A stretch of DNA of 64,000 nucleotides, from NCBI RefSeq assembly GCF_001806325.1, contig NZ_CP017580.1:3162001-3226000 (forward strand), in the 5' to 3' direction. The notes beneath the pieces are model-generated. The model had not been told where the DNA came from. It saw only the letters and a list, made by a program, of their open reading frames with translations, and made no database searches. The position numbers and the translations under genes were made by a program. Positions within the stretch are counted from its first letter, which is position 1; the number at the start of each line of letters is the position of its first letter. This document shows, one piece after another, positions 1,867 to 14,121 of this stretch. The stretch comes from Curtobacterium sp. BH-2-1-1. GTDB taxonomy: Bacteria > Actinomycetota > Actinomycetes > Actinomycetales > Microbacteriaceae.

Positions 1867-3522
1867 TCAGCGACCGCTCCCCGCCCCGTTCCGGACCCCG
1901 ACCCACAGCCCGTCCCGCGCCCGCGTCATCCCCACGTACAACTCCCTCCGGCCGCGCTCTCGCCGCTCCCGATCCGTCTCGGACGGCTCACCCGTCACCG
2001 GATCCAGCAGCCGACGGTCGACGTGCGCCAACAGCACCTGCTTGAACTCGAGCCCCTTCGCCCGCTTCACGGTGCCGACCCGTACGGCGTCGGACGTCCT
2101 GCCGGAGTACTCGTCGAGCATGATCACGGGGATGCCGGCATCCCGCAGGACGCCCCGGACGTCGTCCGCGTGCCGCTTCGTCGCGGTGAGGATCCCCACG
2201 TCACCGTGCCCCGTCCCGATCAGCCGGAGCACCTCGCTCAGCCGCGCGATCATCGAGCGGTCGTGCTCGGCCCGGCTCGAGAACCGGTGGAACGCCGGCG
2301 TGGGACCGGAGCGCGAGACGTCGGACACTGCATCGCCGACACCGTCCACGCCCTCGATGTCGACGAACTGGTCGTCCGCCACCATCTCCTTCGCGAACTC
2401 GAGGATCGCCGCCGTGTTGCGGTGGTTCACGTCGAGCACGACACCGCGTCCGGAGAGGCTGATGCCGACCTCGCCGAGCGTGTAGCCGCCCGGGTAGATC
2501 GTCTGCTGGCCGTCCCCGATGAGCGTCAGCCCGTCGGCTCGGTCCCCGACGAGGTGGTGCATAAGCGAGACCATCGCGCACGACAGGTCCTGCGCCTCGT
2601 CGACGATCACCGCGTCGTACCGCTCGAGCGGCACCGCCGCGACTGCATCGCGCGCGAGCAGGACGATGTCCTCCCAGTCGTGCGCGCGCCGCTCGCGCAG
2701 GCCGCGCGAGTACGCCTCGTAGAGGTCCCACACCGCCTGCCGCGTCTCCACGGGCAGCGCGTGCTTGCGCCCGACGCGCGCCAGGTCGGCGTACTCGTCG
2801 AAGCGCGTCAGGCCGCGCCCCTTGATGACGTGCTTGATCTCGTCCTCCCAGTAGGAGCGCGAGAAACGCGAGGACCGCAGTGGACTGGAGGCGCGGATCG
2901 CGTTCCAGGCGTCGTCGAACGCGAGTCGCGCCTCCCGTCCGGGCGTGCGGAACGCGATCCCGCGTTCCTTCAGCAGGCGCGTGGCGAACGCGTGGACGCC
3001 CATGAAGTCGACGCGACCGACCATGTCGGGCGCGAGGCGCTCGAGGAGTGACTCGAGGACTCGCGGCAACGTCTTGATGTAGGTGGTGAAGAGGACGCGG
3101 CCGCCGGTCGAGCGTGCAAGGTAGGCGGCGCGGTGGAGGCCGACGACGGTCTTGCCTGTGCCGGCGGCGCCGCGGATGCGTGCCGGGCCGTTGAAGCTGC
3201 GGCGGACGAGCTTCGCTTGGGCGGGGTCGAGGAAGGCCATCCAGTCCTCGATGGGCGCTTCGAGGACGCCGTCGAGGAGCTGGTCCGTAAGCTCGTCGTC
3301 GAGGGTGATGATCGTTGGGTCGGGTTCGCGGGGGAGGACGGCAGCAGGGACGACGATCTGCGGCGGGGTCGCTGCCTCCTCGCCGATCACGGGGAAGTGG
3401 GTGAGCATCGCGGCGAGGACCTCGTCGACGCGTGATGCCGAGAGCCGGGCGCCGCGCTTCGTGATGTGGCCGACGAGGTCGTGCGCGCCGATGACGTCGA
3501 CGGACGCTATGCGGGCGTGCAT
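1867..3522 (-). CDS. UvrD/Rep superfamily I helicase lacking most of its NERD domain
   Basis: The 551-aa protein has the full SF1A motif set: Walker A GAAGTGKT (about residue 118), DEAQD, GDGQQTIY, VNHRN, RAKGLEF and YVGMTRARDGL. It should be a 3'-5' DNA helicase or translocase. The first 60 residues (VDVIGAHDLVGHI...LSASRVDEVLAAMLTHFP) match the end of a NERD nuclease-related domain. The same frame stays coding-like for 28 codons before the ATG (GEVHAVAALAGQKR) but has no start codon before a stop at 3601-3603. The upstream neighbour (3604) begins right there. I infer a NERD-helicase whose 5' part was lost when the TIR-like gene was joined here. It may still be translated from 3522, or may be a decaying gene. 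Confidence 0.75.
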   Translation of the reverse strand: MHARIASVDVIGAHDLVGHITKRGARLSASRVDEVLAAMLTHFPVIGEEAATPPQIVVPAAVLPREPDPTIITLDDELTDQLLDGVLEAPIEDWMAFLDPAQAKLVRRSFNGPARIRGAAGTGKTVVGLHRAAYLARSTGGRVLFTTYIKTLPRVLESLLERLAPDMVGRVDFMGVHAFATRLLKERGIAFRTPGREARLAFDDAWNAIRASSPLRSSRFSRSYWEDEIKHVIKGRGLTRFDEYADLARVGRKHALPVETRQAVWDLYEAYSRGLRERRAHDWEDIVLLARDAVAAVPLERYDAVIVDEAQDLSCAMVSLMHHLVGDRADGLTLIGDGQQTIYPGGYTLGEVGISLSGRGVVLDVNHRNTAAILEFAKEMVADDQFVDIEGVDGVGDAVSDVSRSGPTPAFHRFSSRAEHDRSMIARLSEVLRLIGTGHGDVGILTATKRHADDVRGVLRDAGIPVIMLDEYSGRTSDAVRVGTVKRAKGLEFKQVLLAHVDRRLLDPVTGEPSETDRERRERGRRELYVGMTRARDGLWVGVRNGAGSGR

Positions 3523-3603
3523 GCGCTTCTGTCCGGCGAGGGCTGCGACGGCGTGGACCTCGCCCGGCGCGAGACCAATAGGTCGGCGAGGCGGGCACTT
3601 GGG

Positions 3604-4608
3604 TCACCCTTGAATCAGACCAGCAGCGACCAGTTCAGTGCGGAGCGCATCTTTCCAGTTCAGGCCCGGGTACTCGACGTAGCTGAGCCCAGCCAAGTCG
3701 GAGGGCCGCTCCACATCAGCATCGACCACGACGACGTTCTTGCGGCCGATCTTGCCGATGAAGTAGCCCAGTTCGAGGACTACGTTCTGACGTGCACGCG
3801 GATTCGGTTCGGTACCCGCTTGGTGATTCCCGATGGTTTGACCCACATCGTCAGGCGTGAGCAGAACGATCACGAAAGAAGTGGCGTCTCCGTAGGTCTC
3901 GAACTTCTCGATGATCGTCTGCCCGCGGCCGGCTTCCTCCGCAAGCGAAGTAGGCATGATGCCCGTGTGCTTATGAACGAAGATTCGGATCGAGTTCAGC
4001 GCTGCATCGTCGTGGCCGTGAACGATGAAGATCGAATCTGGCTGCTCAGCCGCATCTGCAGGCGAGAGGGTTTCTAAGGGAGTCGACTCGGCCGCGGGCG
4101 AGGGGTTTGCCGACGGAGTCGACTCGGTTACGACCCATGGCAGCACCGGGTCAGGCCTCGGATCCCGGTCACGCCACTGAGCAAAACGTGCCCGGGCTTC
4201 CCACTCCTCGTCTTCCTCGTCGAAGGCGGAGGTGTCCCGCCAAGCAGCGGGGATTTCCGATTGATCCCGCGATTGCAGGTAGTCCTTGAAGAGCTTCCTG
4301 GTCCGGGTCGGCGCGTGCTCCTGCACCCACGTCACTAAGTCCGGCATGGAATCGGCGAAGAGTTCCATTCGGCCCGCTTCGCCTGACTCGTCTTCCACAG
4401 CTTCGGAGGCGAAAAGCTGGCCGACCACCTCGATCGCAGCATCCGGGTAGTCGTCATCCCCGAAGCCCAGGGAGCGGTACAGCCGCGGGTGACGGCTGAT
4501 GATATCGCTTGTCCCGGTCTCGCGACCTAGCGCACGCCAGTTCGAGTCGTTCCAGTTGTCGGCCGCGTAAGCAGCAATAGCGTTCTGCAGGGGGTCCACA
4601 CGAGCCAT
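3604..4608 (-). CDS. TIR-like domain (CAP12/Pycsar-effector type) nucleotide-binding protein
   Basis: The 334-aa start is the ATG at 4608; longer versions of the frame are not coding-like. Residues 1-185 form an acidic region of no recognised family. Residues 191-334 are the predicted nucleotide-binding TIR-like domain (PF10137 type): SIFIVHGHDD, AEEAGRGQTIIEKFE (E234 is the likely NAD-cleaving Glu), FVIVLLTPDDVG, RARQNVVLELGYFIGK. Known members degrade NAD or act as effectors of cyclic-nucleotide anti-phage systems. No cyclase gene is adjacent, so a stand-alone defence protein is more likely than Pycsar or CBASS. Base composition is lower in GC than the core genes, consistent with transfer. 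Confidence 0.8.
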   Translation of the reverse strand: MARVDPLQNAIAAYAADNWNDSNWRALGRETGTSDIISRHPRLYRSLGFGDDDYPDAAIEVVGQLFASEAVEDESGEAGRMELFADSMPDLVTWVQEHAPTRTRKLFKDYLQSRDQSEIPAAWRDTSAFDEEDEEWEARARFAQWRDRDPRPDPVLPWVVTESTPSANPSPAAESTPLETLSPADAAEQPDSIFIVHGHDDAALNSIRIFVHKHTGIMPTSLAEEAGRGQTIIEKFETYGDATSFVIVLLTPDDVGQTIGNHQAGTEPNPRARQNVVLELGYFIGKIGRKNVVVVDADVERPSDLAGLSYVEYPGLNWKDALRTELVAAGLIQG

Positions 4609-4614
4609 GCTCAG

Positions 4615-4620
4615 AGTATA
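4615..4620 (-). promoter_or_regulatory. -10 box (TATACT) of the TIR-like gene, leaderless pattern
   Basis: On the minus strand TATACT lies exactly 6 nt before the ATG at 4608, the spacing of leaderless actinobacterial transcripts. No Shine-Dalgarno is present. The -35 region (TGCGAT at 17 nt) is weak. Confidence 0.5.
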
Positions 4621-4750
4621 TGAGGTGGCCGCTAGCGATCGCATATGAGCAGGTGTGCATGCGCGGCCTTTGGAGGACTGTCGCGGTGCGTTCCGTGATC
4701 TCGGAGCGAGCCGCGCGCTGCTCGGCGGCGTGGTTCGACACCTGCTCTCG

Positions 4751-4794
4751 TTCCTCGGGAAGTGGACGAGAGTTCCTCGGGAAGTGTACGAGAG
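4751..4794 (+). repeat. tandem 22-bp direct repeat (two copies, one mismatch)
   Basis: Two adjoining 22-bp units (4751-4772 and 4773-4794) begin TTCCTCGGGAAGTG and end ACGAGAG, differing at one base. They lie between the divergent TIR-like gene and the McrB-like remnant. No gene covers 4621-4955. The repeat could be a duplicated binding site or slippage product. Confidence 0.7.
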
Positions 4795-4955
4795 CGGTAC
4801 GGATCTCATTCATCTCCTGTTCGGGGGAGTTGCGGCATGGCGCACGAATCTGCGGCGGAGAGGCGTCGCCGCGCGCCGGTCGGGAAATTACCGTGATGCC
4901 CTAGCATCTGGAACGTGAGGACCCCTCCCGAAGGTCCGCAGATCAGGAGCATCCC

Positions 4956-6058: not shown

Positions 6059-6976
6059 TCACTGCGACTCGCGAATTGACGTCGCCTCGGCGGCTAAATA
6101 AGTCAGGGCGGGAAGCGTGACCCGCATTTCGGTGCCCGGTAGCCAAGGCCTCCAGCAGGCGGTCGGTGGGTGAAAACGTGCGCTCTCTTCCCATCGGAAC
6201 ATCCCCGCCTCCTTGGGAGCGATTCGTTCGATATCGACGGCCATCAACACCCAAAGACCGGCGACATCGGCGCCGGTGATTGTGTCCGACATTAGAATTG
6301 AGGATCGAAACTCCACCTGGAGAAGCTTCCACTCATCGTGATTATGGCACGCAACGTCGTATTCGTTACGTGACAAGTGAAACTCTCCGCGAGTCTTAGA
6401 AGTGCACCCCTTGATCTCCCAAAAGCGGGTGTCGCCTTGGTCGCATGCAATATCGTATCCAGCAAAACCAGCTGAATCGGCGACCAGCGTAGGCATACGA
6501 TGCTCAATCCGGAGGGCTTCCATTGCGACCAACTCCGCAGCGCGCCCAATCCCTAGCTCCCGCGCGCGATCTCCTTCGGTTTGAAGCCGGCGATAAGCGC
6601 CAATCAGAATCAGATCGAGATGCGGCTCCATCCAGGATAGCTGTCGGAGGTCTGCATGGGGAATTAGCTCGCGACTCACAGTCACGCCCCGTACAGCCGC
6701 CCACAACCAACTAGGTGGTTCTGCTTCAATCAGAATGGCAGCGAGTTGTAGCAGGGTGCCTTTGTCTGCCCGCTTGCCAACAGAAGCAAGCTTTGAGCTG
6801 GGGATAAACTCCCCAGCTTCCATCACAAGATTACTTCTCAACAGGTGCATGGCGACAGGGTGATGACTAATTGCGCTGGAGAGGAAAGCACTGGCTTCAC
6901 TCGCGCGCCGAACCCAGTCGGCCCTGTCGATGATCCTGGAATAGCGCAGAGACGACAGAAGCAGAAACGCACTCAT
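6059..6976 (-). CDS. DUF3883 (NO VEIN C-terminal) domain protein, candidate nuclease
   Basis: The 305-aa protein starts at the ATG at 6976; a GTG at 7000, 4 nt after the helicase stop, is an alternative. The N-terminal 130 residues are helical with no known motif. The C-terminal half carries the DUF3883 signature: GRAAELVAMEAL (E149), GYDI (D175), FWEIKG (E187 and K189), then LSRNEYDVA. E...D...ExK is the residue order of PD-(D/E)XK nucleases, so DNA cleavage is a reasonable inference. It is the last gene of the four-gene operon facing the methyltransferase and is much less GC-rich than the core genome. It would be the natural effector if this is a restriction system. Confidence 0.75.
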   Translation of the reverse strand: MSAFLLLSSLRYSRIIDRADWVRRASEASAFLSSAISHHPVAMHLLRSNLVMEAGEFIPSSKLASVGKRADKGTLLQLAAILIEAEPPSWLWAAVRGVTVSRELIPHADLRQLSWMEPHLDLILIGAYRRLQTEGDRARELGIGRAAELVAMEALRIEHRMPTLVADSAGFAGYDIACDQGDTRFWEIKGCTSKTRGEFHLSRNEYDVACHNHDEWKLLQVEFRSSILMSDTITGADVAGLWVLMAVDIERIAPKEAGMFRWEESARFHPPTACWRPWLPGTEMRVTLPALTYLAAEATSIRESQ

Positions 6977-7004
6977 CGTGGCGCCGTGTGTCGGCAGCAC
7001 TAGC

Positions 7005-8879
7005 TTAGACCGCCATGATGTGTTGGGACACAGCAGACCTGTCGTCGAGCTCGGCAGGCAGATTGTAGGTGCTTTCATCCGGAAGCGCCACCTGGACGAG
7101 CCCGTCGTCGTTCATCAGTACACTAAGGGCCTTCACCTTTTCTGTCATGCGCTCAGATACAACCTCGTCAATCGTACCTTTAGACACTAGGACGGTGAAA
7201 TTCGTGGTCGTCGAAGACGCCAAGCCTAAGCGATGGATTCGATCCTGGCTTTGAAGGAATTGCCCTGCATTGAAGGTGCGATCCAGGTAGATTGCGTAAT
7301 GGCACCAATGATGCAAGCTTATTCCCTCGCCGGCCGCCGCGGGATTCGCTAATAGAACCGAGCAAGAATCGTCGAACCGGAATCGCTCGAGCTCGTCGTC
7401 TCGGTTCTGCTCACCACTTTGAGCGCCTTCTCTCGTCGGAACGCCGCCGTGGACGATTGCGGGATTGTATTCTGCTAGAAGTTGCTGCAGAAGGCGGATA
7501 TTGCGTACAAAAGCGGACCAAACAAGCACCTTCCTTCCATCACGAGCGGCTTGGCGCACTTCATTGAGAACGTACTCGTACTTCCACGGCAACTCATACC
7601 GAGCGTAACTCGCAAGTAGCTGTTTGAGGGACTCGTTTCCCGCCAGCTCGAGCGGGCCGTGAGACACGCCGCTCTCGTCTGCCTCGTCCGACCCTGCTGT
7701 CAGAAGTGAAGGGTTGGTGGCCGCCTCGAGTAGATACATGGTTATTCGGCCAAGTCGACGTAAGTCTCGCTCGGACTGTCGCTCTAGCTGGAAGCTCCCC
7801 CGGTACTCACCGAGCAGGGATGCGTAAATCGCTGCCTGAATCGGCCCCGGATCACGACGTTCGACGTGCCATTCTGGATCAGGGATTTCCAGTGCCGCTT
7901 TGGTCGTGCGTACGAAGAATTGACGAACGGCCATGCTAGTGTCGCGAACCACATCTTCGTCTCGCGACCTCGCTTCTTCGTAGGCCGCAGGCGGGAGAAT
8001 CTGATGATCCTGTCCGGGATACAAGAACCGAATCGGAGCGATCAAGTCAGATGCGCCTTGTGGCGCCGGAGTTCCCGTCAGAACATCCCGACGATGAGCG
8101 GTATAGGCAAGGTCTATGACGGCGCGGCCGTGGACACCGCTAGACCCTCGCTTGATCCGGTGTGCTTCGTCGAGGATAACTTGAGTGCGAGTCGAGCCGA
8201 CGAAACTTCTAATTCTCTCGTAGTCGGAAGCTACCCGATTGTAGTTGCTCAGAAGTAGATCGGTGTCGACAGGGATGATTCCGGAGGTGCCCTGGTGAAT
8301 CTCGATTTTTGGCGCAGGGAACATTGAGTCAGCACTATCCATTCGCCAAGCCTCAAAAGAAGATAGTGGCCCGATAACGAGGAGCTTAGCGACTGTTCCG
8401 CGAGCCCGCTGAATAGCGAAATTCGCGAGAGCCACTGTGGTCTTACCGGCTCCGGGCACAGAAAAATCCGCCCCGTGAGGAAGGGAAAGAAGCTTCGCGA
8501 GGTTGTCCAGTTGGAAGGATTTCAGCTTCCGCCTGAACCCTGCTGCCTCAAGCTCAAGCGTGAGGCTTTCGACGTTCTCCTTGATCGCCCCCTGCCCAAC
8601 GGCTTCTCGCGCCCGACGATCAATAGACAGTCGTCGCAGATGAATCGCGAGCTGGTCATCAAACTCGAGCTCTTCCTTGTAAAGGCGCTTAGCATCACGT
8701 ACACCCGCCAGTCTGTCGAAGAAGACCTCAGCAAGGACCTCCATATTCAGACTATCGCCAGCCACGACGCCGCGGGAGAGTTCGGATTGGAGATGCGCCC
8801 ACGCACCCCTGTTCGCGTGTTCGCGTTGTCTCACTGCAACGATGGGGCGCGATCCGTTGAGTAGACTGAAGCTGATCAT
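7005..8879 (-). CDS. SNF2-like DEAH-box helicase/translocase of the island operon
   Basis: The 624-aa SF2 ATPase starts at the ATG at 8879, overlapping the stop of the ParB-like gene (ATGA). Visible motifs are Walker A in SVPGAGKTT (about 140-148), ILDEAH (235-240), LTGTPAPQ (motif III), an NPAAAGEGISLHHW stretch (motif V) and QSQDRIHRLG (motif VI, SNF2/Rad54 style). The first 110 residues have no recognised domain. Such proteins typically translocate on double-stranded DNA without unwinding it, as in type I restriction, DISARM and related systems. Its position between a DNA-binding-like and a nuclease-like protein fits a motor subunit. Confidence 0.85.
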   Translation of the reverse strand: MISFSLLNGSRPIVAVRQREHANRGAWAHLQSELSRGVVAGDSLNMEVLAEVFFDRLAGVRDAKRLYKEELEFDDQLAIHLRRLSIDRRAREAVGQGAIKENVESLTLELEAAGFRRKLKSFQLDNLAKLLSLPHGADFSVPGAGKTTVALANFAIQRARGTVAKLLVIGPLSSFEAWRMDSADSMFPAPKIEIHQGTSGIIPVDTDLLLSNYNRVASDYERIRSFVGSTRTQVILDEAHRIKRGSSGVHGRAVIDLAYTAHRRDVLTGTPAPQGASDLIAPIRFLYPGQDHQILPPAAYEEARSRDEDVVRDTSMAVRQFFVRTTKAALEIPDPEWHVERRDPGPIQAAIYASLLGEYRGSFQLERQSERDLRRLGRITMYLLEAATNPSLLTAGSDEADESGVSHGPLELAGNESLKQLLASYARYELPWKYEYVLNEVRQAARDGRKVLVWSAFVRNIRLLQQLLAEYNPAIVHGGVPTREGAQSGEQNRDDELERFRFDDSCSVLLANPAAAGEGISLHHWCHYAIYLDRTFNAGQFLQSQDRIHRLGLASSTTTNFTVLVSKGTIDEVVSERMTEKVKALSVLMNDDGLVQVALPDESTYNLPAELDDRSAVSQHIMAV

Positions 8880-10186
8880 TCTTTGCCAGTGTAGTAGGAA
8901 GCTATCAGTTTTTTCAAAGTGCTAACTCGTTGCTCCATCGCTGGCTCGTCAAAACCTTCGAATGCGCGGGCCCTCCGAAGCGCTGACAACGCTCGTTCAA
9001 ATTCTGTAATAGCTTTGTCCGCCCGCGCGATGGGGTCCATCTGGGTGCGTTGATCGCGCGCGTCTTCCTCGGCTTCGGCGGCAGCAGCATCGACTGCCCC
9101 CCGGACCGTTTCCAGTAGCTGTCGCACCTCGATAGTTTCCCCGGTAGGAAGGGAGATTACGTCCTCCGATGAGCGAGTTGCGAGCGTGCGGAGCATCGTC
9201 TCGATTGGTCGAGGCGCTTGTGATTCGCCAAGAACATCGTCGAGGGGGTCAGTTCCTATGGTCTCGTCGGCGGCATCATCGACCATCAACGCTGCGATTT
9301 CCGGAGTCCGGCTCAGTTCGTTTTCCACTAAGGACTCTGCGTCCGCACGACGCAGGTGTCGCAGGCGCCGATACTGAACATTTGCGAGTGTTCCGAGGAA
9401 GTATACGGATCGGACGGCCTCGGCCTCGGCATTCTGCTTACCACGAATATGTTTTGTTAGCTCGTCAAAAGCGGACTCATTCTCATTGAATTCAAGCAGC
9501 TGTTTCGAGCCACCAGAGATTGCAACGAGCTGATGAACTTGTTGAAGCTTCTCATATTGGGTCCGCACATCGTTCAACTCGCGATGCATTCGATTTGCTA
9601 CTCGTGCGAAATCTCGATTTTCGCGTTCATAAAGCTCCTCGATGAGAAGAGCCTCGTTGATCCATCCGTACCCCTGCTTGAAATCCCTGGCAATCTGGAG
9701 CTCGGTCTCGAGGTCGACGAGCTCATCGTTTGTTGCGTCACTGGGCAGCAATAGGCATTTCACATACTTTGCAGGAAGATGGTTATCCTGGAGGAAGAGG
9801 CTTCGAAGAGCTGCAGCTCGACGATTCCCATTAATCAGGATACCGTCAGCAGTGATTACGGCGGGTTCTTGCTGGCCACGGGCCGCAAGGTCGGATTTCA
9901 GTTCTTGGAAACCGTCTTGCGTTGAGAGGATTTCGAATTGGGCTTCTTGAGCTACGGGGCCAAGGGGATCTGTTCCGAACAGGTCCTCGTCGATCCTTGC
10001 GACGCGAGCCCGTTGCTCGGCTCTAGTCCGATGGTTAAGAGTCGAGAACCTAACCCATTCGACGTCGAGTTCTACAACATCGAGCCTCTTCTGAGCCCTC
10101 GGCCAGGCGGGGAGTTCTGCGTCCCCGACCCGCACCCGTGCCTGCAGGAAGTCAAATCGTTGTCCGTCGAGATATGCGTTTATCAA
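8876..10186 (-). CDS. ParB/Srx-like N-terminal domain protein of the island operon
   Basis: The 436-aa product starts at the TTG at 10186, 3 nt after the previous stop. The frame stays open upstream to 10310 but has no ATG or GTG there, and a GTG 17 codons further in is another option. Residues about 85-130 (FEILSTQDGFQELKSDLAARGQQEPAVITADGILINGNRRAAALRSL, split here by key blocks FQELKSDLAARGQQEP and ILINGNRRAAALRSL) match the ParB/sulfiredoxin-like fold, with ING-NRR as the ParB box II motif. The rest is alpha-helical and charged, with likely coiled coil near the C-terminus. ParB-like domains bind CTP or act as nucleases or ATPases in phosphorothioation-linked and other defence systems. It is not a partition gene: there is no ParA partner. 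Confidence 0.75.
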   Translation of the reverse strand: MINAYLDGQRFDFLQARVRVGDAELPAWPRAQKRLDVVELDVEWVRFSTLNHRTRAEQRARVARIDEDLFGTDPLGPVAQEAQFEILSTQDGFQELKSDLAARGQQEPAVITADGILINGNRRAAALRSLFLQDNHLPAKYVKCLLLPSDATNDELVDLETELQIARDFKQGYGWINEALLIEELYERENRDFARVANRMHRELNDVRTQYEKLQQVHQLVAISGGSKQLLEFNENESAFDELTKHIRGKQNAEAEAVRSVYFLGTLANVQYRRLRHLRRADAESLVENELSRTPEIAALMVDDAADETIGTDPLDDVLGESQAPRPIETMLRTLATRSSEDVISLPTGETIEVRQLLETVRGAVDAAAAEAEEDARDQRTQMDPIARADKAITEFERALSALRRARAFEGFDEPAMEQRVSTLKKLIASYYTGKE

Positions 10187-10188
10187 TT

Positions 10189-11040
10189 TCAGGTCCGATG
10201 TGTACTGGATAGGGCCGGGCCGGCGTTGTTTGAAATGACGGTGCTTATAGTTCCGTCGCTTCGTTGACGGAAGCCTATCTGGCTGGTGAATGAGGGTGTC
10301 GATGTCGCCTCAATAGAGAAGGCCGCTAGGAGCACGCGTGGGAAGTTTGGTCTCGCATTGCGCTCCCAGTTCCAGGATGCGGATTCTGCTTTCCTCGACG
10401 TGGGCATGGCCCAGACGCACGGGGGAGGAACCATTTGACCATCGATATCGATCGCTTGGGCCTGTTTTGGGCAAAGGCGCTCTTGAGTGCCACAAAGATC
10501 ATTGTGGAATACCACGCCCGACAGGGTGCCCGGAGAATCGCTAAAAAACCGGCGGCGTAAACGACTCACTCCACGAGCAACGTGTTCTCCGGGATGTGCT
10601 TTTTTGCTTGAGCAAAGCCACCAGAGGTAGGTCTCAATTGCCCACGAGGGCTCCTGCCAGAGAACACTGCTGTGTACGCCGTCAGGACAACCCTTTTGGA
10701 TGATCGCCACGCTTCCAAGCTGAGGAACCTCCAGGCGGTAGACCGTATCATTCCCGTACTGGGGGATTGTGAACGAATCTATGAGTCCCCGGCGCTGCAG
10801 TTCATAAAAGATGCTTGCCAAGAAATTTCTGCGGCGGCCATTATCTGCGCTCGTTCGGCCTCGTAGGGTTTCAATCGCTGCAGGAAGTGCCCGAGCGTAT
10901 TCGTCGGACGACAGGCCCGCTCGCGCGAGAGTCTCTTGATCTGTAGCCAACGTCTGCACGAGCTCGGCGACTCTGTCCACTACTGAGGCGGGTACATCTG
11001 ATGCATGCCTGCACGGTGCGGCTTCCGCAGCTTCGGTCAT
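10189..11040 (-). CDS. unknown 283-aa protein, first gene of the island operon
   Basis: The start is the ATG at 11040 (MTEAAEAAPC), preceded by a GGGAA-like ribosome site. I do not recognise the family. The C-terminal half is notable: ETYLWWL, RRRFFSDSPGTLSGVVFHND, LCGTQERLCPK, VPPPCVWAMP and a final SQIGFRQRSD region. The Cys residues in LCGT...LCPK...PPPC with the preceding His could bind a metal. It sits next to the methyltransferase gene and 3 nt before the ParB-like gene, so it could be a target-recognition or restriction subunit; that is inference from position only. Composition is island-like. Confidence 0.65.
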   Translation of the reverse strand: MTEAAEAAPCRHASDVPASVVDRVAELVQTLATDQETLARAGLSSDEYARALPAAIETLRGRTSADNGRRRNFLASIFYELQRRGLIDSFTIPQYGNDTVYRLEVPQLGSVAIIQKGCPDGVHSSVLWQEPSWAIETYLWWLCSSKKAHPGEHVARGVSRLRRRFFSDSPGTLSGVVFHNDLCGTQERLCPKQAQAIDIDGQMVPPPCVWAMPTSRKAESASWNWERNARPNFPRVLLAAFSIEATSTPSFTSQIGFRQRSDGTISTVISNNAGPALSSTHRT

Positions 11041-11146
11041 TCGGTCACTTCCCGGTACCTTGATGCCATGTGTCCCCCAAGCTGGGCACAAGTCGAGTGA
11101 TGCGTGCAGGCTTGATTACCTCGATGACCATACTTGCGGACGGATG

Positions 11147-11169
11147 CTTCGCGCGCAAGGCGCGCGAAG
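11147..11169. promoter_or_regulatory. perfect 10-bp-stem hairpin in the divergent intergenic region
   Basis: CTTCGCGCGC and GCGCGCGAAG flank an AAG loop. The element lies in the 239-bp gap between the divergent operon (start 11040) and the methyltransferase (start 11280). It has no T-tract, so it is more likely an operator, or a site acting in the leader of one transcript, than a terminator. Confidence 0.5.
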
Positions 11170-11267
11170 TGCTTCAACTCCGTGTAGCTCCGGGCGGAGG
11201 GTGGATGCTAGAGCGGAGGGGCACTGCGACCCGCCGTTTGTTGGCGTAGCGCGTCGGCGGCGTGGCG

Positions 11268-11273
11268 TAGGGT
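11268..11273 (+). promoter_or_regulatory. -10 box (TAGGGT) of the methyltransferase gene, leaderless pattern
   Basis: TAGGGT ends exactly 6 nt before the GTG start at 11280 and no Shine-Dalgarno precedes the start. No convincing -35 was found. Confidence 0.4.
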
Positions 11274-11279
11274 GGTTGG

Positions 11280-12383
11280 GTGGCGTCAGATCAGGAGAAC
11301 TCCCCGCAAGCGCTTGAGTTTTTCGCCGGCATTGGGCTTGCGCGCATTGGGCTTCAGCAAGCAGGGATCGGTGTTTCATGGGCGAATGATTATGAGCCTG
11401 CCAAACGTCAGATGTATGAGCGGCAGTTTGGAGCGGGCCACTTTCATTTAGGTGATGTCGGTAAGGTTGCCGCGGCTTCATTGCCGAAAAACACGGCACT
11501 TGCTTGGAGTTCTTCGCCGTGTACCGATCTTTCCTTGGCAGGTTCGCGGGGAGGCTTGTCATCCGGGGAGTCAAACGCGTTTTGGCAATTCATTCGCGTA
11601 TTAACCGACTTGGGCGTTGATCGTCCTGGAATGGTAGTTCTCGAGAATGTTGTCGGTCTCGGGACTTCCCATGGCGGTGATGACATTGCCGCTGCTATCC
11701 GCGCTTTCAACAACCTTGGGTATTCCGTTGACGTCCTTATGATCGACGCTAGAAGGTTCTTGCCCCATTCGCGACCGCGCCTGTTTATAGTTGGTTCAGT
11801 ATCGGTGCCCGTTTGTGTTGAAGAAGGAGAATCGGTCCTCCGGCCGAGCTGGTTGAATTGGATATACGCTGACCCTACTCTGCGTACGCATAGGATGCCA
11901 CTTCCGACTGTCCCCGACTTGCTATCTACCGGCTTTTCCGAACTAGTGAGCTCTTCGGCGGGTGCTGTGGTCGATTGGTGGAACCAGGAACGCATCTCGG
12001 CATTCGAGGACTCGCTATCTGCGATTCAACTTGAACGGATGATTCTTCTGCGCCAGCGTGAAGAAGTGGTTTATCGTACGGCGTATAGGAGGACACGCGG
12101 TGGTGTTGCAACCTGGGAGATGCGACCTGACGACATCGCTGGGTGCCTTCGGACGGCGCGTGGGGGGTCTTCGAAGCAGGCGGTCGTTGAGCTCGGCCGC
12201 GGAAGGATGAGAGTTCGTTGGATGACTCCGAAGGAATGCGCCGCTCTCATGGGGGCCTCGGAGTTCAACTTGGGTGATGCGCGAGTTAATCAGGCATTGT
12301 TCGCGTTTGGCGATGCGGTTGCGGTCCCGGTGGTTCGCTGGCTAGCTGAAAACTATCTCCGTCCCTTGATGACTAGTAATTGA
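11280..12383 (+). CDS. DNA (cytosine-5-)-methyltransferase
   Basis: The 367-aa enzyme transfers a methyl group from S-adenosylmethionine to cytosine in DNA. Motif I is LEFFAGIGLARIG (about residues 12-24), the catalytic Cys is C81 in SSPCTDLSLAG (motif IV), ENV is at 122-124 (motif VI), HSRPRLFIVG is motif VIII, and AFGDAVAVPVVRWLAENY is motif X. The target-recognition region is short (about 175-290), and the recognition site cannot be predicted. It is divergent from the four-gene operon at 6059-11040 and shares its low GC. It is probably the modification (self-marking) arm of that system; an orphan or phage-derived enzyme is the alternative. Confidence 0.92.
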   Translation: MASDQENSPQALEFFAGIGLARIGLQQAGIGVSWANDYEPAKRQMYERQFGAGHFHLGDVGKVAAASLPKNTALAWSSSPCTDLSLAGSRGGLSSGESNAFWQFIRVLTDLGVDRPGMVVLENVVGLGTSHGGDDIAAAIRAFNNLGYSVDVLMIDARRFLPHSRPRLFIVGSVSVPVCVEEGESVLRPSWLNWIYADPTLRTHRMPLPTVPDLLSTGFSELVSSSAGAVVDWWNQERISAFEDSLSAIQLERMILLRQREEVVYRTAYRRTRGGVATWEMRPDDIAGCLRTARGGSSKQAVVELGRGRMRVRWMTPKECAALMGASEFNLGDARVNQALFAFGDAVAVPVVRWLAENYLRPLMTSN

Positions 12384-12612: not shown

Positions 12613-14121
12613 TCAGCGTAGATTCGTTCCCGTCCGTCCAGGCGGCATAAAGGCAACATCGAGAGATGCTCGCAGGGCCACGGTGTCATCGGTCGACGTC
12701 GCCGCCTGCGCCTCGAGATCAGCCCGCACCGACGCCGACACGCCAAAGAACATCGTCGCCACGAACCCCACGACGTACGCCACCACGAGCCCCGACCCGT
12801 ACCCGAGCAACGCCCAGCCGTAGCCGGAGGACCCGTTCAACAGCGGGATGAGCGACAGATCCGACGCCCCGATGGCGATCGCCCCCACGGAGTGCCCGAG
12901 CTGGTCGAACAGCCCGACGACCCCGCCACCGAACGCCCCACCGATGCACGCCGTGATGAACGGCCGCCCGAGGGGGAGCGTCACACCGTAGATCAGCGGC
13001 TCGCCGACCCCGAGGAACCCTGCCGGCAGCGCCCCGCGGATCGTCCGCACGAGCGGGGCGTTCGACCGGAACCGCACCCACAGTGCGATGCACGCACCGA
13101 TCTGCCCGGCACCGCCCATCGCCAGCACGGGCAGCAGCACGGTCCACCCGGTCTGCTCGATGAGCGTGGCGTGGATCGGGATGAGCCCCTGGTGCATCCC
13201 GGTCATGACGAGCGGCAGGAAGAGCCCGCCGAGGATGAACCCGGCGAAGGCCCCGCCGTTCGCGAGCAGCCACGTGGCAGCCGTACCGATGGCGACCGAG
13301 ACGACGCCGGCGACGGACATCAGGATGCCGAGCGTCACGGAGCCGGCGACGAGGATGGTGACGGTCGGCACGACGATGAGCGCGATGACGTCGGGCGTGA
13401 CCTTCCGCATGAAGCGCTCGACGTAGGCCGCGAGGATGCCGCCCGCCAGCGCTCCGAGCACACCGCCCTGCCCGGGCGCCAGGGTCTCACCGAACACGGT
13501 GACGTTCGCGACCCCGGCCGCGACGATGATGCCGCCGACGGCACCACCGAGGATGGGCGTCCCGCCGAACTCCTTCGCGGCGTTCATCCCGACGAACACG
13601 GCGAGCAGGGACAGGAACCCGGAGGACAGCACGCCGAGGAACGGCGTCGCCCCGGGCAGCCACCCGAGGTTCGTCAGGATGCCGTTGATCCCGGCGATGA
13701 GCCCACAGGCGATCAGCGCGGGGATGAGCGGGATGAAGATGGCCGAGATGCGACGGATGGCACGCATGGTGCGGCCGTCGGAACGGGCACGGGCGGATGC
13801 CTTGATCGACGCGCCCCGCGCCGCCAGCTCCTCGGGCGACACCGAAGCCGAGGACGCACCCGGAACAGGAGCATCACGCAAGGACTCGAGCGAATCAGCC
13901 ACCCGGTCCACCAACCCCGGCCCGAGCACGATCTGCAGGTTCGAGCCGGCCGCGATGGCGGCCATGACGCCCTCGGTGGCCTGGAGAGCGGGCAGATCCA
14001 CAGAGGAAGGAGAAGCCACCTCGACCCGCAGCCGGGTCATGCAGTTCTCCACGTCGGCGATGTTCGAGGACCCGCCGACGGTGTCGAGGATCTGTTGTGC
14101 GAGTTGCTGTGCATCGGTCAT
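12613..14121 (-). CDS. murP: PTS IIBC component, N-acetylmuramic acid type
   Basis: The 502-aa product is a fused EIIB-EIIC. The EIIB domain is residues 1-90 with the phosphorylated Cys in NIADVENCMTRLRV. The EIIC domain (about 120-480) has roughly ten membrane segments and the GVGEPLIYGVTLPLGRPF motif of the glucose/sucrose superfamily. It imports and phosphorylates a sugar at the membrane and needs EIIA from elsewhere, since none is fused. The gene follows murQ by 41 nt in the same operon, which points to N-acetylmuramic acid as substrate, giving MurNAc-6-phosphate for MurQ. Sequence alone would also allow another amino-sugar or beta-glucoside. Confidence 0.85.
   Translation of the reverse strand: MTDAQQLAQQILDTVGGSSNIADVENCMTRLRVEVASPSSVDLPALQATEGVMAAIAAGSNLQIVLGPGLVDRVADSLESLRDAPVPGASSASVSPEELAARGASIKASARARSDGRTMRAIRRISAIFIPLIPALIACGLIAGINGILTNLGWLPGATPFLGVLSSGFLSLLAVFVGMNAAKEFGGTPILGGAVGGIIVAAGVANVTVFGETLAPGQGGVLGALAGGILAAYVERFMRKVTPDVIALIVVPTVTILVAGSVTLGILMSVAGVVSVAIGTAATWLLANGGAFAGFILGGLFLPLVMTGMHQGLIPIHATLIEQTGWTVLLPVLAMGGAGQIGACIALWVRFRSNAPLVRTIRGALPAGFLGVGEPLIYGVTLPLGRPFITACIGGAFGGGVVGLFDQLGHSVGAIAIGASDLSLIPLLNGSSGYGWALLGYGSGLVVAYVVGFVATMFFGVSASVRADLEAQAATSTDDTVALRASLDVAFMPPGRTGTNLR

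What the first reader, a model, noticed from the sequence alone, without database searches (positions are those of the whole stretch)
6059..12383. Candidate undescribed restriction/anti-phage system: C5 methyltransferase facing a four-gene ParB-like/SNF2/DUF3883 operon
Seen: a complete C5-MTase (11280-12383) divergent from four genes in one operon (gaps of 3, overlap of 4, and 28 nt): a 283-aa unknown, a ParB-like protein, an SNF2/DEAH motor and a DUF3883 protein with D175...E187-x-K189. All are much lower in GC than the rest (43-52% in hand-counted lines against 77%). Known: MTase plus SNF2-like motor plus PD-(D/E)XK nuclease is the logic of type I, DISARM and related restriction. Inference: a mobile defence system with self-marking by 5mC and a translocating nuclease. 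I cannot match this gene set to a named system (it lacks the DUF1998/PLD genes of DISARM and the PglZ of BREX).
Basis: partly seen in the sequence, partly recalled or inferred. Interest (0 to 1): 0.88.

Follow-up and report, generated by a model that had tools for sequence, protein, structure and literature searches.

The report
Dead restriction enzymes steering a nuclease
Bacteria from several phyla carry a DNA-marking enzyme together with a restriction enzyme that has lost its cutting residues, a ParB-type DNA-binding protein, a DNA motor and a second nuclease; this looks like a new kind of ATP-powered restriction system in which a former cutter has become the part that recognises the site.

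Summary
The five genes are real. The four-gene cassette recurs in Actinomycetota, alpha-, beta- and gammaproteobacteria and a Verrucomicrobia MAG. In the cassette its PD-(D/E)xK site is lost in 31 of 31 members (D to V/I, E to I/V); 8 of 8 two-gene-type relatives keep the D and 7 of 8 the E/D. The ParB-like protein folds like ParB/Noc/KorB, 44 of 44 SNF2 motors keep their motifs, and NOV_C/DUF3883 keeps an intact nuclease site (25 of 25). More distant ParB-SNF2 modules carry two other degenerate REase families, HNH-like (12 of 12) and BglII-like (6 of 6), each beside a methyltransferase. Best reading: an ATP-dependent restriction engine that uses dead Type II enzymes as site readers, with methylation protecting self. 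Function is untested. Its proteins do not show the signature genes of a named PADLOC system, and I found no description in the papers searched.

The parts
6059..7000 (-). NOV_C/DUF3883 protein, likely PD-(D/E)xK nuclease (GTG start at 7000; ATG at 6976 is the alternative). E156, D183, E195-x-K197 and Q228 (313-aa numbering)
   Evidence: Pfam NOV_C 1.3e-10; these residues invariant in 25 of 25 aligned homologues
7005..8879 (-). SNF2-family motor (624 aa), likely dsDNA translocase
   Evidence: Pfam SNF2 4.1e-12 and Helicase_C 8.2e-8; Walker A, DEAH, TGTP and DRIHR motifs present in 44 of 44 homologues
8876..10186 (-). ParB-like protein (436 aa): ParB N-domain with NGNRR motif, HTH domain, long C-terminal helix
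10189..11040 (-). Degenerate Type II REase relative (283 aa), proposed site reader; catalytic D and E replaced by V100 and I114, K116 kept
   Evidence: PADLOC REase_II 5.8e-15 (scanned as the 300-aa ORF); alignments; AlphaFold pLDDT 82 with strands 100-105 and 109-116
11041..11279 (.). Divergent intergenic region with a perfect inverted repeat (arms 11147-11156 and 11160-11169); possible operator or terminator
   Evidence: promoter- and terminator-like sites not above shuffles
11280..12383 (+). C5 cytosine methyltransferase (367 aa), proposed self-marking enzyme; the only PF00145 match in the genome
   Evidence: Pfam 9.3e-36; PADLOC MTase_II PDLC03243 5.7e-152 and DruM2 2.1e-100; own-genome search

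Best explanation
It is an ATP-dependent restriction-modification system. Step 1 (inferred): the methyltransferase marks the host's sites. Step 2 (inferred from homology): the 283-aa protein, related to the restriction enzyme that partners this methyltransferase subfamily elsewhere, still recognises the unmethylated site but cannot cut, because both catalytic acids are gone (the loss is shown in sequence). Step 3 (inferred): it hands the DNA to the ParB-like protein and the SNF2 translocase. Step 4 (inferred from intact motifs): the NOV_C protein, the only one of the four with a recognised intact PD-(D/E)xK site, cuts the foreign DNA. The ParB-SNF2 pair, often with NOV_C, is a portable engine that has taken on inactivated REases of at least three families (at least two folds).
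For: (1) REase-like, ParB, SNF2 and NOV are together in that order: SNF2 in 30 of 31 loci and NOV in 27 of 31, with 4 of the 5 absences at a contig end. (2) An MTase of the same subfamily is in 29 of 31 loci (28, Kozakia); the other two are cut by a contig end. Background in the window's class is 1.08 PF00145 matches per genome (160 in 148 genomes, fragments counted). (3) In two-gene systems the same MTase subfamily sits next to a REase with D...ELK; in the cassette D is V/I and E is I/V in 31 of 31. (4) The dead clade of 31 is monophyletic, support 0.969 (FastTree, midpoint root), and under purifying selection: dN/dS 0.038-0.259 in nine pairs. (5) NOV catalytic residues are invariant in 25 of 25. 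(6) Replacement in progress: two-gene-type REases inside cassette loci are intact in L010 and L040, have A for the catalytic E in L043, are split in L018 and truncated in L035 and L036, while the MTase stays. (7) Recurrence with HNH-like (12 of 12 lack His and Asn) and BglII-like readers (6 of 6 have Q for E).
Confidence: 0.6

Rival explanations
1. Two neighbours only: an orphan (ex-Type II) methyltransferase, kept for example by Vsr, lies beside an independent ParB-SNF2-NOV defence operon, and the REase-like gene belongs to the operon without using the methyl mark.
For: The MTase is not in fixed order or strand and is swapped or diverges faster than the cassette; a Vsr gene was found in 25 of 31 loci, though not in the window, and Vsr can stabilise solitary C5 MTases (PMC12907096, abstract and outline read). 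L103 and L016 have ParB-SNF2-NOV with no MTase found.
Against: One MTase subfamily in 29 of 31 loci against about one C5 MTase per genome in the window's class; in L025 and L027 a decayed MTase copy lies beside an intact one of the same subfamily; other reader types come with other MTases.
Confidence: 0.15
2. The degenerate REase is a sensor of modified DNA or of a nucleotide, so the system is Type IV-like or signal-activated, and the MTase does something else.
For: [quoted passage not shown] both catalytic acids are lost, and 29 of 90 columns invariant in two-gene relatives differ in every dead member.
Against: This would have to arise at least three times from different REase families, each beside a methyltransferase; 30 of the same 90 columns are kept in at least 90% of dead members.
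Confidence: 0.13
3. The cassette is an accessory to a still-active Type II system, for example a booster, controller or plasmid-maintenance device, rather than its replacement.
For: L010 and L040 keep an intact two-gene-type REase; NaeI genes lie near four HNH-type loci without NOV; L100 carries the ParB-SNF2 pair behind a Type III mod-res pair.
Against: 27 of 31 loci show no REase of the two-gene type at 150 bits or more in the stretch examined; Kozakia's is split. In the window's genome a search with the two-gene REase finds only the dead one; other REase families were not searched for.
Confidence: 0.12

Closest known systems
CglI / NgoAVII ATP-dependent RM systems
   Same: A methyltransferase plus a separate endonuclease protein and a helicase-like ATPase thought to translocate from the site (PMC5737866 abstract; PMC4267653 search listing).
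   Different: Two restriction proteins, R (endonuclease) and H (ATPase), in an R2H2 complex; no ParB-like protein, degenerate Type II REase or NOV_C is mentioned in the abstract (domain details recalled).
Classical two-gene Type II RM of the PDLC03501/PDLC00028 kind (e.g. Phaeobacter pP14_g)
   Same: Same MTase subfamily and a homologous REase.
   Different: Its REase keeps D...ELK and has no motor gene beside it; here the REase has lost the site and ParB, SNF2 and NOV are added.
Type I RM
   Same: Separate recognition, motor and nuclease functions plus a methyltransferase.
   Different: Type I has R, M and S subunits (PMC3874165, search listing); here the proposed reader is an ex-REase and the MTase is a separate C5 enzyme.
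DISARM class 2 (DrmMII, DrmD)
   Same: C5 MTase and SNF2-like motor; weak DrmMII and DrmD hits.
   Different: No DrmB or DrmC hit in the rows shown for the seven proteins scanned; DrmD equivalog score 27.9 against a cut-off of 610.
Druantia type II (DruM2)
   Same: The MTase matches the DruM2 model (2.1e-100).
   Different: No DruE, DruF or DruG hit in the rows shown.
BREX type 3 / BREX-related helicases with an inactive REase domain
   Same: SNF2 motor combined with an inactive REase fold (PMC12839542, passages).
   Different: There the dead domain is inside the helicase; here it is a separate protein, homologous to an active-type site-specific enzyme.

Membership tests
Type II restriction endonuclease (the 283-aa protein) | Sequence homology to a Type II REase family | tested here: met
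   PADLOC REase_II 5.8e-15; 25-26% identity to two-gene-type REases
Type II restriction endonuclease (the 283-aa protein) | Intact catalytic D...(E/D)xK | tested here: not met
   V/I and I/V at the two acid positions in 31 of 31
ParB family (fold) | ParB N-domain followed by HTH | tested here: met
ParB CTPase clamp | GERR and ENxQR-type CTP motifs (recalled) | tested here: inconclusive
   NGNRR in near types, GNTR in HNH types, ExxLQ-like motif conserved in the rows aligned; CTP use cannot be tested
PD-(D/E)xK nuclease (NOV_C/DUF3883) | Conserved E, D, ExK, Q | tested here: met
   Invariant in 25 of 25; the frame-broken Kozakia copy and L036 left out
Type II RM system as a whole | Active site-specific REase with cognate MTase | tested here: inconclusive
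   No other member of this REase family in the genome; other REase families not searched for
Type I RM | HsdS and HsdM subunits | tested here: not met
   No such Pfam match among the seven proteins scanned
CglI/NgoAVII-type ATP-dependent RM | One R protein that reads and cuts (partly recalled), plus helicase-like ATPase | tested here: not met
   The proposed reader lacks the catalytic acids; the nuclease motif is on a different protein
DISARM | DrmB and DrmC | tested here: not met
   No such row in PADLOC for the seven proteins (the lists of the MTase and the UvrD-like protein are cut at 25 of 49)
Druantia type II | DruE/F/G with DruM | tested here: not met
   Only DruM2 among the rows shown (same limit)
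Zorya II | ZorA, ZorB and ZorE with ZorD (recalled) | tested here: not met
   Only partial ZorD matches, best 8.4e-15, from the SNF2 core
ATP-dependent restriction system | NTP-dependent cleavage blocked by methylation | not testable with these tools
   Needs biochemistry

The most novel reading that the evidence does not exclude
A ParB-type nucleotide-gated DNA clamp has been taken out of chromosome and plasmid partition and put into restriction. A catalytically dead Type II REase plays the role of parS: it loads the clamp at unmethylated sites, the clamp spreads and recruits a SNF2 translocase with a NOV_C nuclease, and Type II RM pairs of different families (PDLC03501, HNH or BglII type) can be converted into this ATP-driven form by killing their cutter.
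Probability: 0.35. Interest if true: 0.92.

Novelty: new variant of a known kind. Interest (0 to 1): 0.8.

Why it matters
If true, restriction enzymes of different families have repeatedly been turned from scissors into addresses, which is a general route from simple Type II systems to motor-driven restriction. It would give a function to a group of ParB-like proteins that Pfam does not recognise and to DUF3883 nucleases next to SNF2 motors, and would put a ParB-type protein into a new job. It also warns that annotation may call such loci ordinary Type II RM, because the dead enzyme still matches a REase model.

Tried and rejected

Rows dropped before counts: L001 (a copy of the window); from A7 L009, whose NOV is frame-broken, and L036, a near-duplicate, of 27 loci with NOV; from A6 L007-L010, L036, L039 and the partial L044; the row L018_5676 has no letters at the active site, so the two-gene-type denominator is 8; one search left out both L018 fragments (7 references); one search used the 26 of 31 loci that hold all five proteins. 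In one search a strict GNRR pattern missed the HNH-type ParBs (which have GNTR) and one row (L007) that matched upstream of the gene; one search shows aligned motifs for 15 selected ParBs instead. A strict ExK pattern missed L068 and L070, which have EAK. In one search one ratio is above 1: NOV in the pair L008-L038 (1.22, dS 0.04), where L008's NOV is shortened behind an IS.
Full report
Observation. The five ORFs, their strands and the operon layout are as reported. Corrections: the 283-aa gene is 10189-11040; the ParB-like gene starts at TTG 10186, a 2-nt gap; the DUF3883 gene likely starts at GTG 7000. Genes are 55-57% GC in a 70-72% GC setting. In 12-kb stretches of four congeneric genomes, alignment with the first 20 kb of the window starts at 12,701-12,706 and runs rightwards; one stretch also matches 3242-3576 in the UvrD-like gene. 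So the block is an insertion whose right edge lies near 12,701. The gene to its right (12613-14121) reads as a PTS transporter (my reading, not scanned); in one congener it is followed by a MupG gene, where the window has the MTase.

Conservation. tblastn on plasmids found the same four genes in Azospirillum, Mesorhizobium, Kozakia and Rhizobium, and a pattern-based scan of one genome per species gave 26 more loci in Actinomycetota, alpha-, beta- and gammaproteobacteria and one Verrucomicrobia MAG. Of 31 loci including the window, all have the REase-like and ParB genes (ParB was the search handle for the 26), 30 have SNF2 and 27 have NOV; 4 of those 5 absences are at contig ends and one (L042) has full flanks. 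Kozakia's NOV is frame-broken. An MTase scoring at least 300 bits against the subfamily profile, where other C5 MTases score about 20-45 bits, lies in 28 of 31, plus Kozakia on the other side of its plasmid: 29 of 31. The two without one (L020, L039) end 2.1-2.7 kb downstream of ParB. C5 MTases average 1.08 matches per genome in the window's class (160 in 148 genomes), and the window's genome has exactly one. A viral contig, L093, holds the same set. Vsr, a companion expected of C5 methylation, was found in 25 of 31, not in the window. Within the genus 1 of 65 other genomes has a ParB relative, 32% identical and of another subtype: the system is patchy and probably mobile.

The dead restriction enzyme. 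Two-gene systems on plasmids pair a homologue of the 283-aa protein with the same MTase subfamily (Phaeobacter, Methylomonas, Xanthomonas; Desulfosarcina with Vsr). The two-gene type has xD(Y/F)...(E/D)LKG. The 31 cassette members have (V/I)Y...(I/V)QKG, one of them RKG: the D is V/I and the E is I/V in 31 of 31, while 8 of 8 two-gene-type homologues keep the D and 7 of 8 the E/D; the exception, L043, sits in a cassette locus. In the model (pLDDT 82) these positions lie on strands 100-105 and 109-116. Of 90 columns invariant in 7 two-gene-type homologues, 30 are kept in at least 90% of dead members and 29 differ in all of them, so the change is wider than the two acids. The dead clade is monophyletic (0.969), and its dN/dS is 0.038-0.259 in nine pairs, so it is a maintained protein.

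Replacement in progress. The MTase is present in all six. In L025 and L027 a decayed MTase copy lies at the cassette edge beside an intact one. Against simple co-divergence, MTases differ far more than the cassette in 5 of 9 pairs (dN 0.33-0.50 against 0.05-0.19), and rank correlations of distances are lower with the MTase (0.40-0.56) than within the cassette (0.59-0.75; 0 of 300 permutations reached any of them, 26 loci).

Nuclease and motor. NOV_C keeps E156, D183, E195-x-K197 and Q228 in 25 of 25 aligned, of 27 loci with the gene (L009 and L036 left out). SNF2 motifs are intact in 44 of 44 near and distant members.

Other readers on the same engine. Searching with a distant ParB gave 8 further genomes besides the window's (9 of 394), adding to five loci found before. 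Of these 13 HNH-type ParB-SNF2 loci, 12 carry a small HNH-like protein and a C5 MTase, and 6 carry NOV. The HNH family matches a PADLOC REase_II model (PDLC03478: L046 1.4e-5, L050 8.8e-10). The one reference with HNH catalytic residues (Rhodococcus pROB02, L050, next to a C5 MTase, NaeI and Vsr; Pfam HNH 6.4e-6) has GHLIP...NNL; 12 of 12 cassette members lack that His and Asn but keep both CxxC pairs. NaeI genes lie near four HNH-type loci without NOV (scores 342-709), with a weak match in a fifth. A third type in Paracoccus (L015), four viral contigs close to it and a more distant one (L097) has an N4/N6 MTase, a BglII-like protein (Pfam PF09195 1.5e-5, just below its cut-off), ParB, SNF2 and NOV (in L090 SNF2 is partial and NOV not held); 6 of 6 have QLQ or QIQ where BstYI has EVQ and BamHI EFE (that these E are catalytic is recalled). 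L015, L089 and L092 are near-copies, so the independent sequences are fewer than six. BglII-type enzymes probably share the PD-(D/E)xK fold with the first family (recalled), so these are three REase families of at least two folds. Still wider, a Lacticaseibacillus plasmid has Type III mod-res followed by a ParB-like protein and SNF2 (L100), and Exiguobacterium has ParB-like, SNF2 and dcm (L099). L016 and L103 have ParB-SNF2-NOV with no MTase found.

Mechanism. Shown: gene association, loss of catalytic residues in readers, intact nuclease and motor motifs, ParB fold in the model. ParB-family CTP-dependent clamping is recalled knowledge; the motifs here (GNRR or GNTR, and an ExxLQ-like motif) are similar but not identical to the canonical ones, so nucleotide use is open.

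Literature. Searches: ParB+SNF2+restriction-modification+DUF3883 (1 paper), MutL/MORC/ParB/Vsr (2), CglI/NgoAVII (6, 5 listed), ParB-like+SNF2+anti-phage terms (3), ParB+CTPase+restriction-modification+anti-phage (0), inactive REase and specificity subunit terms (11; listing only), ParB+SNF2+type III (1), DUF3883+restriction (3), ParB-like+Vsr terms (3). PMC3710099 (passages) calls DUF3883 a novel REase domain fused to SNF2 in RM operons, and notes ParB-like endoDNases in RM contexts. PMC12839542 and PMC10853773 (passages) describe inactive REase or SNF2 domains in BREX-related and Dnd systems. PMC8011034 and PMC6098607 (passages), PMC5737866 and PMC12907096 (abstract and outline) and PMC4267653 (listing) do not describe this gene set in what I saw. 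Most subscription papers and all preprints are outside that library.

Verdict. A conserved, probably mobile, restriction-type system without a match to a named PADLOC system in the proteins scanned, in which a Type II REase relative has lost its catalytic site next to a ParB-SNF2-NOV engine and a methyltransferase.

Noticed in passing
window 3604-4809 (-) and 1867-3522 (-): An AbiJ_NTD5 + CAP12/TIR protein and a UvrD-like helicase lie left of the cassette; the stretch between the UvrD-like gene and the gene at 12613 does not align with the congeners fetched, which suggests a defence hotspot.
   Followed up: partly
L100 4338-7503; L099 3717-7488: ParB-like (GNRR) plus SNF2 pair directly behind a Type III mod-res pair in Lacticaseibacillus, and in an Exiguobacterium locus with dcm: the engine may serve Type III systems too.
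   Followed up: partly
L103 5719-11832: A same-genus genome has ParB-SNF2-NOV with a DUF4238 protein upstream and no MTase found.
   Followed up: partly
L025 14197-14460; L027 14230-14692: Decayed copies of the MTase at the cassette edge beside an intact second MTase of the same subfamily.
   Followed up: yes
L008 12191-13138: An IS481 transposase sits between SNF2 and a shortened NOV gene in Mesorhizobium R31.
   Followed up: no
L042 11299-15291: A Streptomyces cassette with full flanks and no NOV gene found; its nuclease is unexplained.
   Followed up: no
L007 2520-2789: PLSDB lists a 'baeS' resistance gene over a short hypothetical protein; looks like a spurious call.
   Followed up: no
window 11147-11169: Perfect 10-bp inverted repeat between the divergent MTase and cassette genes, a possible operator.
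   Followed up: no
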